A stretch of 64,000 bases of DNA from Dichotomocladium elegans (lineage: Eukaryota; Mucoromycota; Mucoromycetes; Mucorales; Lichtheimiaceae). Both the position numbers and the translations under genes were made by a program. Shown here one piece after another: positions 7,541-54,438 of this stretch (positions are counted from its first letter, which is position 1; every line of letters starts with the position of its first letter). The DNA lies in NCBI GenBank assembly GCA_025716815.1, contig JAIXMN010000003.1, positions 1,364,001 through 1,428,000 on the forward strand. Direction: 5' to 3'. The notes beneath the pieces were generated by a model. That model was given only the letters and a program-made list of their open reading frames with translations, did no database searches and was not told where the DNA came from.

Positions 7541-8130
7541 ATGGGATTACCCAGAACACGTGATGATGGTTCATTTGAATTGCAACTGATCCCCTTTGCT
7601 CAGCTACCAAAGCGTATAATCTTTACAGGACATATTTTCACAATTGTGAAAGACTCTCCTATCTTTGGTTCTGAACGCATAGAATTGAGCCTATCTTTTC
7701 CAGAATCTCCCGTACCGATTACGTATAAGATTGTGCTGCGGGCGATTAGCGATTTTTTAATAATAATGGGCGCGATCCGAAAGCCTACCGAATACGTCAT
7801 GACGAAGATTTGCATTTTCTTCAAAAGTTTTCTGCCACCAATAATTACTAGCATGAGCCTTCTCCTGGACATCTGTAATTTGCTATACATAGTGTTGAAA
7901 AATGATTCGACTTATGGCAATTCTACAGAGACCATCGTCGTATGTATATGGACATGTAAAAACAACAAACGGCTGAATATGAGAATATGTCGGATCCAGA
8001 TTGCGGAAGAATTGTTGAAATATGAGAAGATTATGTCTATAGGATTATCTGGCGTTAGTTTGGATTTTGGATACTGTTCATATAAAACAGCTCATCAGTG
8101 AAACCGATGATAAGGGCTTTGTCATTCAGA
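7541..8130 (+). CDS. Hypothetical protein, divergent from the ING gene
   Basis: An open frame from ATG 7541 (MGLPRTRDDGSFELQLIPF) runs 186 codons. Likely splicing removes a GTATGT intron at about 7939-7999 (acceptor CCAG), giving IAEELLKYEKIMSIGLSG, and perhaps a further short intron before LISETDDKGFVIQR, which ends at a GTATGT donor at about 8131. The first 90 residues look like a compact beta-rich segment with many hydrophobic pairs. I do not recognise a family. The 3' end is not found with confidence, so the gene may be longer or decayed. Confidence 0.35.
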
Positions 8131-50549: not shown

Positions 50550-51880
50550 CATTTTGCCCAAATCGAATGTCACACACATACACGGAAGATGTCGCACAAA
50601 AAAAGAAGCTTTCTCTTTTATACACTTTAACATTCTGAAGTGGGCAACCTAATTTTCTACCAAGATGGCCAAGGTCATGTCGTTGATGAGCGTGGCTGTC
50701 TTGAACCTACGGACTATGCCATTGATGAGGAAATGTACTCACTTCAATCCGTTTGTTCTCACACTGAATATCTGCGTAGCATATTGTGCAAAGATAACCC
50801 TGAGCTTACTCCCACACCCATTCCCCAGCGAAAGGATACAGACATTCGGACGAAAGAAGCTGGGATCAAGCGCAGTTACACAGCATGAACTGACCAAGAC
50901 AAGGTCAGATTTTTCAAAGGGATGTTTGAGATGATCTTGAGTGCGTCAGCTGCTAGGTCTCTATATTCGTTCAGCCCAGCGATGGGCATTGCAGTACAAG
51001 AAGGGCCCTAACAGCATCTTTAAAAAACCTAACACGGGGGAACTGTTCGCGTATTCTCAATGAAGGGCATAAGCGCATTCTTTTAGAATGCGTTGATGAA
51101 GACCCATCCATTGTTCTAGAGTAGCTGCTCCAACGATTTGAGGGTATCAAAGCATCTAAAACGACGCTCCATCGATTTATGAAAACGTATGCAACTAGTC
51201 ATTAAAAATGGTTCGGTTTCAGCCTATAGACAGGAATAATGCTGCGAAGATCCAAGAGCGCCTTGACTGAGTATGCAGATGGGATAGGAGCGACATCGAC
51301 TTCAAAAGCTGCGCTTTTTCTTTGATGAATCTGGATTCCATATTAACATGAAATGCAGCATGATGTGGTCCAAGAAAGGGACCCCTGCAGTGGTTACAGT
51401 ACCGAAGACAGCCACAATCGTGGGAGCAATCTCAGCATCAGGCATCATTCAATGTAGCTTGAGGCTCCCGCAGCCACCAATCAAGAAAAGAAGAGGGCAG
51501 GTCAATCTGAAGTTGCGAGCAGAGGAACTGCAACTGAACATCATCTCAGTTTCCTTAAGGCAACAATGGACGAGATGGATAAGTATGAACATATGAAGGG
51601 CCATTAGTTGGTAATGGATAGTGCACCTATCCATACGACTCAGGATATTTCTGAATACATCGAGTCTCGGGGATATCGATATGCTTATCTTCCACCATAT
51701 TCGCCTGAACTCAATTCTATTGAGCAGTTTTGGTCAGTGGTCAAGGGCAAAGTTAAATGCAATAGGTTCTTGGAAAGCGAGACGTTGATAACACAGATCA
51801 GCGAGGCATCCAACAGCTTAAAGCTGAGCGATTTCGAAGGTTTCGTTTCTCATTCTCGCATGTGCTTAGTTAACTGGCGC
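50550..51880 (+). mobile_element. Dead Tc1/mariner-like element, copy 2
   Basis: A plus-strand transposase relic whose 5' leader matches the fragment at 14.81-14.97 kb. N-terminal block EMYSLQSVCSHTEYLRSIL; the middle is riddled with stops and frameshifts; the C-terminal DDE part is intact in one frame: VMDSAPIHTTQDISEYIESR, YAYLPPYSPELNSIEQFWS, FLESETLITQISEASNSLKL. The second Asp and final Glu of the catalytic triad are present. Similarity to copy 1 ends abruptly at LVNW (about 51873), and no terminal repeat is found at that side, so the right end is deleted. The element lies about 180 bases downstream of the Pho85-like gene. Confidence 0.78.
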
Positions 51881-52002
51881 TGTGTCTACTGCAGCATCGT
51901 TTATCACAAAGAAATTTCTTCTGCTCCTCCTTGATTTCCTATAAATAATGGACAACTGAGAAATCTCCTTTCTCCATCGACTTCATCCCTACCCTCTCTT
52001 CC

Positions 52003-52667: not shown

Positions 52668-53395
52668 TTACTGGGGTTGAAGACCTTCCCAGTCGACAAA
52701 AAGGTCGTCCAACGTATCGCCTACTGGACTAGCCCCACTATCATCATCTGATGAGAGCAAAGGCGAAGGTAAAAATGGCCTCTCGGGCAAGACAACCTCC
52801 ACTGCTGGGAAAAAGGAAATATCTTGACGGAACAACACGCCAGAAAAAGGAAGCCTCTCATCCGTCCTCTTCTCTGTATTTCTTTCTCTATATTCTCTCT
52901 CTCTCTCCACTGGGTATGGACGATGGTGACGATGACGGTTACGCAGTAGACAAGATCGGTGGGTTTGAATCGACAATACTTCGGTTTTCTCCGTTTCTTC
53001 TTTTTTTAAGGCAGTGCTGTGATCAAAATGCTCCTCCTTGCGACCCGTGCTGAATCGCAAAGGCTGTCAAGTCCCAAGTAAGGCAATTTCGCCAACGCCA
53101 TAAGCTGTGCATTCATCATTTGGACTTGTGCCTCGAGGTACTGGTTGCGCTGGGACAAATGCTCGTTTTCTTCCTTCAAGCGTTTGTTACTTGCTTCGAG
53201 GTCAGCAACATATCTGCGCTTGCGGTCTCTGGATTCTTGAGCGGCTGCTCGGTTTCGAAGAATCCGCTCCTTAGTCTTTTGGTCCTTATCGTCCAAGGTG
53301 AGCTTCATCTTCTTTCGACTGTTGTTGTTGTCACTGTTATCGCTGGTCATCAAATGCTTCGTAGAGGTAGACATATTTGTAGAATCACCGCCCAA
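52668..53395 (-). CDS. hacA-like: HAC1/XBP1-like bZIP factor of the unfolded protein response, with frame-switched C-terminus
   Basis: The first frame (53395-53006) starts MGGDSTNMSTSTKH and carries a bZIP: KERILRNRAAAQESRDRKRR (basic region), then LEASNKRLKEENEHL and QRNQYLEAQVQMMNA with zipper leucines. The basic region resembles HAC1/HacA/XBP1. This frame stops after LDSLCDSARVARRSILI. An overlapping frame without its own ATG (53060-52668) continues for about 130 codons and ends in an acidic, hydrophobic tail: FFPAVEVVLPERPFL, SDDDSGASPVGDTLDDLFVD. Linking the two requires loss of 3n+2 bases, the arithmetic of Ire1-mediated cytosolic splicing. No normal GT-AG intron does this. GA-rich codons at 52880-52915 may be low complexity or another intron. 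Confidence 0.75.
53038..53060 (-). promoter_or_regulatory. Candidate Ire1 recognition hairpin
   Basis: On the minus strand, TTGCGATT pairs with GGTCGCAA (six Watson-Crick pairs plus two U-G pairs) around a seven-base loop CAGCACG. Known Ire1 sites are seven-base loops cut after the third base (C-N-G|C). Loop positions 1, 3 and 4 fit; position 6 is C where G is usual. The hairpin lies exactly in the overlap of the two HAC1 frames. Confidence 0.45.
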
Positions 53396-53853
53396 TGGAG
53401 AGAGAGAGAGAGAGAAAGCAGTATAGAGTTATAGTATGAGAGGGAGAGAAAAACGGTAGAGTCGAATAAAGAAAAAAAAAGAAGCAGAAAGCTCATGCAG
53501 TGTAGAATGGACTTTATGGTTTTACATTAACCAATCAGCATGCACCACGATCTCGACCATTCTTGACTCAAACCCCCACTTTCAACCTTCTATTTTAGGA
53601 TCCCGCGGAAACAGACCGGATTCTCCACCCCCAACTTCTTTTGCCGCCCCCCCCCAAGCACCGACTCCGTGGGATGAGGTGTGTGCACATGAAAGCGACT
53701 GGGCACTTCCGGGATTGCCCGTCGCGGTGAGAAGGAGCAGCCTGCGCTTCCGTCGACATATAAAAAGGGCTGCTTGAAAATGGGACCCCACATATTCACA
53801 TCTTTAAATCTCAACACCATTCCAAAAACCCCTCTCTTCTATTATATGGCATC
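53396..53853. promoter_or_regulatory. Divergent promoter between bZIP gene and acidic orphan
   Basis: The 458-base gap contains a (GA)n run at about 53399-53416, and a nine-base C run near 53647. A TATAAAAAG site lies at about 53759 in front of the plus-strand gene. Confidence 0.4.
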
Positions 53854-54438
53854 ATGTGGAAACGCTCTGCTCCTACCTTCTCTCGTCAATTATCACCTCG
53901 CCAGATAGCCTCCAAAGCCCAATCACTCGCTTCCAAAAAGTTGGATCGAGACGAAAAGCGCCGTCGCCCCCAATACCACATGCGGGAACGGGTTCTTCTC
54001 TGTAACACCATGACTGAGGCCGATGCATTCTTGAACAAGCGCACCTGCCGAACCAACAGACGGGTCCTTGCAAGTGAGGAAGACGATGTTGTCGGTTTTG
54101 ACAAGCCCACCTATCACCACAACAACCAGCATCACCCTTGCATCCATCATTCGCCCTTGTGCGACAATGCTCTTTTGGATCAAGACATTGACAACAGCGA
54201 CGATGATTACCACAGTAGCGATGACGACGATGCTACCGTTGTTGCCGAAGAAATTCATCAGCCAAGAAAGATCGACGACGACAGTATTCCCACCGTTGCG
54301 CAGGCGCAATACAACAATATACCCGCAGCCTTTGGCATTACTACCACTCCCTTTCCGTTGGACTGTCGGCTAACAGAAGACCATCTCTTGAGTGCGTATC
54401 ATACCCGCCTTACGTGCCCTGCTCCTGTCCTCATTTAA
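53854..54438 (+). CDS. Hypothetical acidic, probably disordered protein
   Basis: Open frame of 194 codons with a good leader and TATA box: MWKRSAPTFSRQLSPRQIAS, KLDRDEKRRRPQYHM, then a His-rich stretch, an acidic core DNSDDDYHSSDDDDATVVAE, and a C-terminal YNNIPAAFGITTTPFPLDCR. The basic N-terminus followed by an acidic middle suggests a nuclear or regulatory protein, but no domain is visible. A GTGCGT at about 54391 might be a splice donor, so the C-terminus is uncertain. Family not recognised. Confidence 0.5.
   Translation: MWKRSAPTFSRQLSPRQIASKAQSLASKKLDRDEKRRRPQYHMRERVLLCNTMTEADAFLNKRTCRTNRRVLASEEDDVVGFDKPTYHHNNQHHPCIHHSPLCDNALLDQDIDNSDDDYHSSDDDDATVVAEEIHQPRKIDDDSIPTVAQAQYNNIPAAFGITTTPFPLDCRLTEDHLLSAYHTRLTCPAPVLI

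What the first reader, a model, noticed from the sequence alone, without database searches (positions are those of the whole stretch)
52668..53395. HAC1/XBP1-like gene with two overlapping frames and a candidate Ire1 hairpin
The bZIP frame ends in a short tail, while a long acidic frame overlaps it in the register reached by removing 3n+2 bases (as for the 26-base XBP1 and 20-base hacA introns). No GT-AG intron gives this shift. A hairpin with a seven-base loop CAGCACG lies in the overlap (53038-53060). Cutting at CAG|C (53050/53049) and CTG|C (53012/53011) removes 38 bases and restores frame as DSALKKEETEK. A 14-base alternative (CAG|CC to CAG|CA) also fits. Neither length matches a described intron, so this could be a new Ire1 intron type in an early-diverging fungus. 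Weak points: loop position 6 is C, and no good second hairpin is seen.
Basis: partly seen in the sequence, partly recalled or inferred. Interest (0 to 1): 0.9.

Follow-up and report, generated by a model that had tools for sequence, protein, structure and literature searches.

The report
Stress-switch gene with a 245-base intron
This mould gene appears to be the master switch of the protein-folding stress response, kept off by a 245-base insert that the stress enzyme Ire1 would cut out and that may also lock the messenger's start by pairing with it, a trick described so far in budding yeasts.

Summary
The core observation holds: a HAC1-like bZIP frame (53374-53006, minus strand), an overlapping acidic frame, and a hairpin around CAGCACG (53060-53038). 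The proposed 38- and 14-base introns are probably wrong. Tails from relatives put the 3' exon boundary at CAG|CAGU (52805/52804), giving a 245-nt intron (53049-52805) and a 153-aa product with an acidic tail conserved in Mucorales. The 3' site is the only CNG[C/A]NGN seven-base-loop hairpin (three or more pairs) in 53374-52668. The 5' hairpin is encoded by a motif kept in 51 of 54 homologues. Its loop lacks the consensus G at position 6, and its first and last bases are predicted to pair.

Ire1 is present (S. pombe-like interface), as is an RNA ligase domain of the Trl1 kind; RtcB was not found.

Unexpectedly, the 5'UTR is complementary to the middle of the intron (21 contiguous pairs, -73 kcal/mol, reached by 0 of 200 shuffles in each of three controls). 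The intron side, CCCARUGGA, fits 7 of 23 relatives' intron frames in full, in three reading frames, and 9 more in part. This resembles the translation lock of S. cerevisiae and K. lactis HAC1; CT/GA repeats and unseen codon third positions limit it. No RNA data were available. A new variant of the HAC1/XBP1 switch.

The parts
53378..53444 (-). 5'UTR stretch complementary to the intron; core of 21 contiguous pairs at 53411-53391 (UCUCUCUCUCUCUCCAUUGGG), which is -37 to -17 from the ATG
   Evidence: RNAduplex -73.1 kcal/mol with the intron, 0 of 200 shuffles as good in each of three controls; core run listed; helix present in the MFE of the mRNA for three assumed 5' ends. The transcript start is not known.
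53050..53374 (-). 5' exon: start codon, basic region and leucine zipper, ending after the first base of an Ala codon
   Evidence: Pfam bZIP_1 1.4e-9; 54 homologues; ORF
53038..53060 (-). 5' Ire1 hairpin, loop CAG|CACG (seven bases, or five if its C and G pair), proposed cut 53050/53049
   Evidence: six stem pairs P 0.98-0.99; C53052-G53046 P 0.98; encoded by the [CR][DGN]SAR[IV][AV] motif found in 51 of 54 homologues; one exact copy of the core in the genome
53006..53049 (-). intron-encoded C-terminus of the unspliced protein (up to the stop at 53006)
   Evidence: ORF; the equivalent tails in relatives vary widely in length and sequence
52805..53049 (-). proposed Ire1-type intron, 245 nt (2 mod 3)
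   Evidence: 3' boundary placed by homologous acidic frames
52894..52914 (-). intron side of the proposed translation lock, CCCAGUGGAGAGAGAGAGAGA
   Evidence: CCCARUGGA compatible in full with 7 of 23 relatives' intron frames, in three reading frames
52796..52812 (-). 3' Ire1 hairpin UUUCC[CAG|CAGU]GGAGG (five pairs, two of them G-U), proposed cut 52805/52804
   Evidence: only CNG[CA]NGN seven-base-loop hairpin with 3 or more pairs in 53374-52668; 0.032 of 5 or more pairs on average per shuffled sequence, 500 shuffles. In the whole-mRNA fold this register has probability 0.01 or less; a larger loop holding the same site is preferred
52668..52804 (-). 3' exon: acidic, probably activating tail ...VEVVLPERPFLPSPLLSSDDDSGASPVGDTLDDLFVDWEGLQPQ*
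   Evidence: homologous to tails of P0022, P0032 and ORFs P0055-P0078; joined reading frame

Best explanation
The gene is the Mucorales orthologue of HAC1/XBP1. Its mRNA carries a 245-nt intron flanked by two hairpins. Under endoplasmic reticulum stress Ire1 would cut both loops after G (CAG|CACG at 53050/53049 and CAG|CAGU at 52805/52804), and a Trl1-type ligase would join the exons. The bZIP would then continue in the +2 frame into an acidic activation tail (153 aa in all). Without stress, the middle of the intron would pair with the 5'UTR just ahead of the start codon and hold translation down, as in S. cerevisiae HAC1; splicing would release this lock. Shown by sequence: the two frames, both candidate sites, the conserved tail and junction, the complementarity, and domains of Ire1 and the ligase. 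Inferred: cutting, ligation, stress dependence, the lock, and activation by the tail. My odds: 0.82 for the intron (lowered from 0.85), about 0.6 for the lock.
For: Homologues: 51 of 54 bZIP relatives hold the motif that encodes the 5' hairpin, and sequence and length diverge at once after it. The acidic frame is found as gene-model tails in Helicostylum pulchrum and Rhizopus arrhizus (P0022, P0032) and as 24 further ORFs. In the Rhizopus-type ORFs the sequence upstream of FPA|AEV varies in frame while that downstream is nearly constant. 3' site: the only consensus seven-base-loop hairpin in 53374-52668. Both cuts fall after the first base of a codon, so the join is in frame. None of the GT or GC donors that reach the conserved exon and spare the zipper resembles a consensus donor. 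The last 70 nt of the intron hold no CTNAY branch-like motif, whereas the Ire1 gene's own intron has one. Machinery: one Ire1 RNase domain in two exons, one RNA ligase domain PF09511 (that this is the ligase domain of Trl1 is recalled), no RtcB match (whose control finds it in 9 of 14 genomes). Lock.
Against: No RNA evidence. The local region is no more stable than shuffles. The 5' loop breaks the consensus at position 6, and its first C and last G are predicted to pair (P 0.98), leaving five bases. The D/K interface of Ire1 does not settle this: in PMC8104961 the relaxed yeast mutant still wanted G at position 6 on HAC1-derived loops (CNG|NNGN), and only on BIP1-derived loops was G|C enough. 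The seven-base 3' loop is the minor form in the whole-mRNA fold (P at most 0.01). Relatives' DNA could not be fetched, so their third codon positions, hairpin pairing and 5'UTRs are mostly unseen. The 3' end of the intron looks like an ordinary pyrimidine-CAG acceptor. For the lock: much of the helix is a CT/GA repeat; one of 259 other tiles pairs over 24 nt with the same UTR; the longest run outside the repeat (9 nt) has permutation p 0.13 when sought anywhere; 7 of 23 intron frames show no box; two of four N-terminal extensions lack the UTR element; the transcript start is unknown.
Confidence: 0.82

Rival explanations
1. An Ire1-type intron is present but without a translation lock; the UTR-intron complementarity is an accident of a CT-rich leader and a GA-rich intron, and the intron and leader boxes are CCAAT-type DNA elements or chance.
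For: CT-rich leaders are common in fungi (recalled); one of 259 other tiles also pairs over 24 nt; p 0.13 for the run outside the repeat; ATTGG in the leader is an inverted CCAAT box.
Against: The pairing continues out of the repeat in register; dinucleotide shuffles never reach it (0 of 200 in each of three controls); CCCARUGGA fits 7 of 23 relatives' intron frames in full, in three reading frames, against at most 4 for 400 permuted patterns, and 9 more begin with RUGGAR; the window's intron has CCAGT, which breaks a CCAAT box but keeps a G-U pair.
Confidence: 0.3
2. A conventional spliceosomal intron, retained or removed, joins the two frames.
For: Polypyrimidine-CAG at the 3' end; gene models of H. 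pulchrum and R. arrhizus bridge the frames here (P0022, P0032); the genome's Ire1 gene has an apparent GC-AG intron.
Against: The two gene models leave the bZIP frame at different places. In the window one GT donor (53190, GTAACA) reaches the conserved exon in frame and would remove most of the zipper; of seven GC donors none is GCAAGT, the nearest (53223, GCAAGC) would remove the zipper, and the three that spare it (53064, 53058, 53031) do not resemble it. No branch-like motif in the last 70 nt. It does not explain why the hairpin-coding motif is so conserved.
Confidence: 0.09
3. The first reader's 38-nt (or 14-nt) Ire1 intron.
For: It keeps the frame open, and the 38-nt version has the same 5' cut.
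Against: The 3' cut CTG|CCUU is not in a CNG[CA]NGN hairpin, and the peptide it would add (KKEETEKTEV...QDISFFP) has no counterpart in the seven aligned tails, where conservation starts at FPA|(A/V)E.
Confidence: 0.03
4. No regulated splicing: an assembly frameshift or a decaying gene.
For: Two frames without a conventional intron.
Against: Separate bZIP and tail frames also occur in Halteromyces radiatus (P0034, P0078) and in six unnamed contig pairs, and the tail is conserved in Rhizopus and Helicostylum.
Confidence: 0.01

Closest known systems
Saccharomyces cerevisiae HAC1 (252-nt intron, 5'UTR-intron translation lock)
   Same: Long Ire1-type intron of nearly the same length; bZIP exon then a tail in another frame; 5'UTR pairing just upstream of the start (yeast -38 to -20 per PMC8881652; here core -37 to -17); a Trl1-type ligase domain in the genome.
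   Different: 5' loop CAGCACG lacks the consensus G at position 6; Ire1 interface is D/K, not the yeast K/Y; the pairing here is longer and repeat-rich; a distant fungal lineage.
Kluyveromyces lactis HAC1
   Same: Predicted intron-5'UTR attenuation structure with a long intron (PMC6116095, passages read).
   Different: As for S. cerevisiae, but its loops and Ire1 residues were not compared here.
XBP1 / hacA / Candida albicans HAC1 short introns
   Same: Frame-shifting Ire1 intron with hairpins at both cuts.
   Different: Those introns are about 19-26 nt (PMC8881652, PMC6222058; hacA recalled) and too short for a UTR lock; this one is 245 nt.
Cryptococcus neoformans HXL1 (56-nt intron)
   Same: Fungal Ire1-type intron of a bZIP gene.
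   Different: Short, and reported to lack 5'UTR complementarity (PMC6116095).

Membership tests
HAC1/XBP1 mRNA-splicing switch | bZIP transcription factor encoded by the 5' exon | tested here: met
   Pfam bZIP_1 E 1.4e-9. Orthology to Dikarya HAC1 was not tested with a tree.
HAC1/XBP1 mRNA-splicing switch | excision shifts the frame into a conserved activation-type tail | tested here: met
   245 nt = 2 mod 3; joined frame open, 153 aa; tail conserved. Activation itself not testable.
HAC1/XBP1 mRNA-splicing switch | 3' site hairpin with seven-base loop CNG|CNGN | tested here: inconclusive
   Sequence and a five-pair stem fit: UUUCC[CAGCAGU]GGAGG; but the whole-mRNA fold prefers a larger loop with the same site
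HAC1/XBP1 mRNA-splicing switch | 5' site hairpin with seven-base loop CNG|CNGN | tested here: not met
   Strong stem, but position 6 is C, and the loop's C and G pair with P 0.98, leaving five bases. In the 51 relatives with the motif the Arg codon makes position 6 C or A, never G (inferred).
HAC1/XBP1 mRNA-splicing switch | Ire1 kinase-RNase encoded in the genome | tested here: met
HAC1/XBP1 mRNA-splicing switch | tRNA ligase able to join the exons | tested here: inconclusive
   PF09511 domain in one gene; no RtcB match. The other Trl1 domains were not looked for.
HAC1/XBP1 mRNA-splicing switch | stress-dependent, Ire1-dependent removal of the intron | not testable with these tools
   needs RNA from stressed cells
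S. cerevisiae-type HAC1 translation lock | at least 11 pairs between 5'UTR and intron (PMC8881652) | tested here: met
   21 contiguous pairs; helix in the MFE of the mRNA for three assumed 5' ends. Transcript start unknown.
S. cerevisiae-type HAC1 translation lock | pairing conserved in relatives | tested here: inconclusive
   Intron box fits 7 of 23 frames in full and 9 more begin with RUGGAR; UTR box fits P0002 (CCATTGGG) and P0042 (TTGGGYGG only), not P0040 or P0015; no relative was readable on both sides.
S. cerevisiae-type HAC1 translation lock | repression of the unspliced mRNA | not testable with these tools
   needs a reporter

The most novel reading that the evidence does not exclude
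Mucorales run a two-layer HAC1 switch: an Ire1 intron of roughly 130-250 nt whose conserved 5' loop breaks the textbook consensus, plus a 5'UTR-intron translation lock like that of budding yeast. The lock would then be either ancestral to most fungi and lost in many lineages, or invented twice.
Probability: 0.5. Interest if true: 0.85.

Novelty: new variant of a known kind. Interest (0 to 1): 0.75.

Why it matters
It places a HAC1-type stress switch in Mucorales, where my ten library searches listed no paper on HAC1 splicing. It suggests that the translation lock, which PMC8881652 describes as unique to the Saccharomyces clade and PMC6116095 extends by prediction to K. lactis, may be older or recurrent. 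It offers a natural case of a candidate Ire1 site without G at position 6, kept across a whole fungal group. It may also explain why some public gene models here end early or bridge the frames with different introns. All of this can be tested with one RT-PCR and one reporter.

Tried and rejected
Rejected: the 38-nt and 14-nt introns (no conserved peptide, no consensus 3' hairpin); spliceosomal joins; ribosomal frameshifting (not tested; disfavoured because conservation starts sharply at the 3' junction); a paralogue that could have been compared (next best match in the genome 34 bits, ordinary bZIP level). Led nowhere: Rfam (five matches, all below their gathering scores); scans for relatives' DNA in viral contigs and genome contigs (nothing); overlapping-frame reconstruction of intron lengths (lower bounds of 134 to 236 nt for seven pairs assumed to share a contig because their contig lengths are equal; tentative 157-175 nt for four R. 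arrhizus-type pairs taken across records, where other offsets also fit). PDB search of the bZIP gave bZIP factors and a few unrelated chains at weak scores.

Against my reading, also recorded: fold z-scores near zero; the predicted five-base 5' loop; the run outside the repeat has p 0.13; one other tile of 259 pairs over 24 nt; permuted UTR boxes match at least one of the two extensions in 40 of 1000 (CCATTGGG) and both in 19 of 1000 (TTGGGYGG). Of the 7 full intron-box matches, 4 come from the closely related R. arrhizus-type group, so they are not independent; the 9 partial matches at ORF starts had no shuffle control; 7 of 23 ORFs show no box. The search scored only the 8000 candidates that shared most words. 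The MFE pairing depends on an assumed transcript start.

Papers: passages found by terms in PMC8881652, PMC6116095, PMC6222058, PMC8104961, PMC5114014, PMC10512342, PMC7341893 and PMC7711463; outline, abstract and the start of the introduction of PMC4891664. Search listings only for the rest. Hooks and Griffiths-Jones 2011 (PMC3225973) is not held; it surveyed many fungi (as cited in PMC6222058) and may already list Mucorales introns, so no claim of priority is made. The statement that no Mucorales HAC1 splicing paper was listed rests. Of these, some listed every match (4 of 4 each); the others showed only the best 15 to 25 rows. PMC7711463 mentions Ire1 and Hac1 once, citing yeast work.

Full report
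Observation. On the minus strand a bZIP ORF starts at ATG 53374 and ends at 53006. An acidic ORF in the +2 frame is open from 53066 to 52668. Pfam finds bZIP_1 (E 1.4e-9) in the first and nothing in the second. The hairpin around CAGCACG is at 53060-53038. Its 21-base core has one exact copy in the 39.4 Mb genome, and six stem pairs have probability 0.98-0.99 in the folded mRNA. The loop's own C and G (53052, 53046) pair with probability 0.98, so the fold shows five unpaired bases, AG|CAC, rather than seven. Local stability is not unusual (z 0.70 and 0.20).

Relatives, 5' side. A protein search gave 54 homologues among 67 candidates; the named ones are Mucorales, Umbelopsis and Basidiobolus. 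The motif (C/R)(D/G/N)SAR(I/V)(A/V) is in 51 of 54. The three without it are P0032, whose gene model splices through it, P0041, which diverges before reaching it, and P0054, a partial protein. These codons are the hairpin. Straight after it the proteins differ in length (6 to 40 residues, or 59 in the joined model P0022) and sequence. Where the motif varies, the second-position changes still allow pairing: D to G makes A-U into G-U, and A to V makes G-C into G-U (read). C to R and D to N change first positions, and their pairing depends on third positions that are unseen. Because the sixth loop base is the first base of the Arg codon, it can be C or A but not G in these 51. The described consensus is CNG|CNGN (PMC8881652), or CNG|(C/A)NGN for the yeast enzyme (PMC8104961).

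Relatives, 3' side. Gene models P0022 (Helicostylum pulchrum) and P0032 (Rhizopus arrhizus) carry tails like the window's acidic frame. Two profile searches returned 8 and 25 proteins, giving 24 further ORFs, P0055-P0078 (one search was capped at 8000 scored candidates). The 23 that reach the boundary read P-A-A-E-(V/A) there; P0075 starts just after it. In the Rhizopus-type ORFs the residues upstream differ by frame and indels while those downstream are nearly constant. In the window this boundary is FPA|VEV, DNA TTTTTCCCAG|CAGTGGAGG, cut 52805/52804.

The intron. From 53049 to 52805 is 245 nt, 2 mod 3, and the joined frame gives ...CDSAVEVVLPERPFLPSPLLSSDDD...WEGLQPQ, 153 aa. The 3' site UUUCC[CAGCAGU]GGAGG is the only CNG(C/A)NGN seven-base-loop hairpin with three or more closing pairs in 53374-52668; 500 shuffled sequences hold 0.032 such hairpins of five or more pairs on average. 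In the whole-mRNA fold the site lies instead in a larger loop on a longer stem, and the seven-base register has probability 0.01 or less. Of 94 GT-AG and 291 GC-AG combinations that keep the frame, 2 and 14 end at 52805 or 52802. The single GT donor (53190) would remove most of the zipper, and none of the three GC donors that spare the zipper (53064, 53058, 53031) resembles GCAAGT. Seven bZIP and tail ORF pairs with equal contig lengths imply introns of at least 134 to 236 nt in relatives (that they share a contig is assumed).

Machinery. The genome has one Ire1 RNase domain in two exons, with a kinase domain closest to yeast and human IRE1 structures. Aligned to yeast Ire1 it has G at E988, D at K992, Y at 1043, D at H1044, R-N-K at 1056-1058 and, across an apparent 70-nt GC-AG intron, K at Y1059. 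PMC8104961 defines D/E at 992 with K/R at 1059 as the S. pombe-like pattern, predicted to be relaxed, and says the vast majority of species, both human enzymes included, have it. So it is not unusual, and it does not by itself explain C at loop position 6: the relaxed yeast mutant recognised CNG|NNGN on HAC1-derived loops, though G|C alone sufficed on BIP1-derived ones. An RNA ligase domain PF09511 is present (its identity with Trl1's ligase domain is recalled). RtcB was not found.

The lock. The 5'UTR (53444-53378) pairs with the intron (52943-52853) at -73.1 kcal/mol. Against it, 200 shuffles of the intron gave a mean of -39.3 (minimum -51.3), of the UTR -46.8 (minimum -60.4) and of both -40.4 (minimum -59.9); none reached it. 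The same UTR against exon 1, exon 2 and the 3'UTR gave -32.2, -35.4 and -11.1. The core is 21 contiguous pairs, 53411-53391 with 52914-52894, running from the CT/GA repeat into CCAUUGGG/CCCAGUGG. The MFE of the mRNA holds 20, 20 and 39 UTR-intron pairs for three assumed 5' ends. In relatives, the part of the intron readable as protein is compatible with CCCARUGGA in full in 7 of 23 ORFs, in three reading frames, against a mean of 0.175 and a maximum of 4 for 400 permuted patterns. A further 9 ORFs begin with RUGGAR (no shuffle control was run for these), and 7 show no box. On the UTR side, P0002 is compatible with CCAUUGGG and AUUGGGYGG in one register, starting 16 nt before its start codon, and P0042 with UUGGGYGG; P0040 and P0015 are not. 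Controls that weaken it: one of 259 other tiles pairs over 24 nt, through a long GA repeat, and the longest run outside the repeat has p 0.13. In yeast 11 pairs suffice for repression and the pairing spans -38 to -20 (PMC8881652). PMC6116095 predicts the same for K. lactis and says the mechanism is suggested only for such long introns.

Judgement. Ire1-type intron of 245 nt: about 0.82, lowered from 0.85 after the five-base loop prediction. Lock: about 0.6. The gene works like HAC1/XBP1 but fails the strict 5' loop consensus, so I file it as a new variant. Whether the lock is shared by descent or arose twice is open.

Noticed in passing
L023:3475-4670 (Ire1 gene of the same genome, C2): Ire1 carries D at yeast K992 and K at Y1059, the S. 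pombe-like interface linked to relaxed RNase specificity, so it may also do regulated mRNA decay; the exons appear joined by a 70-nt GC-AG intron.
   Followed up: partly
unspliced tails of homologues P0001-P0054: 18 of 51 tails after the motif have a cysteine within the last three residues (such as -CV, -CI, -VC); possibly a degradation signal like the intron-encoded one of yeast Hac1u.
   Followed up: no
window 53350-53496, minus strand: A 48-codon upstream ORF would overlap the HAC1 start codon if transcription begins above 53496.
   Followed up: no
window 51608-51934, plus strand: An ORF matching the C-terminal part of the DDE_3 transposase domain lies downstream of the gene (Pfam E 4.6e-16).
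   Followed up: partly
window 53854-54438, plus strand: Divergent 194-aa ORF without a Pfam match shares the upstream region.
   Followed up: no
P0022 and P0032 (public gene models): Annotated models of H. pulchrum and R. arrhizus bridge the two frames from different points of the bZIP frame, probably forced by the annotation pipeline.
   Followed up: partly
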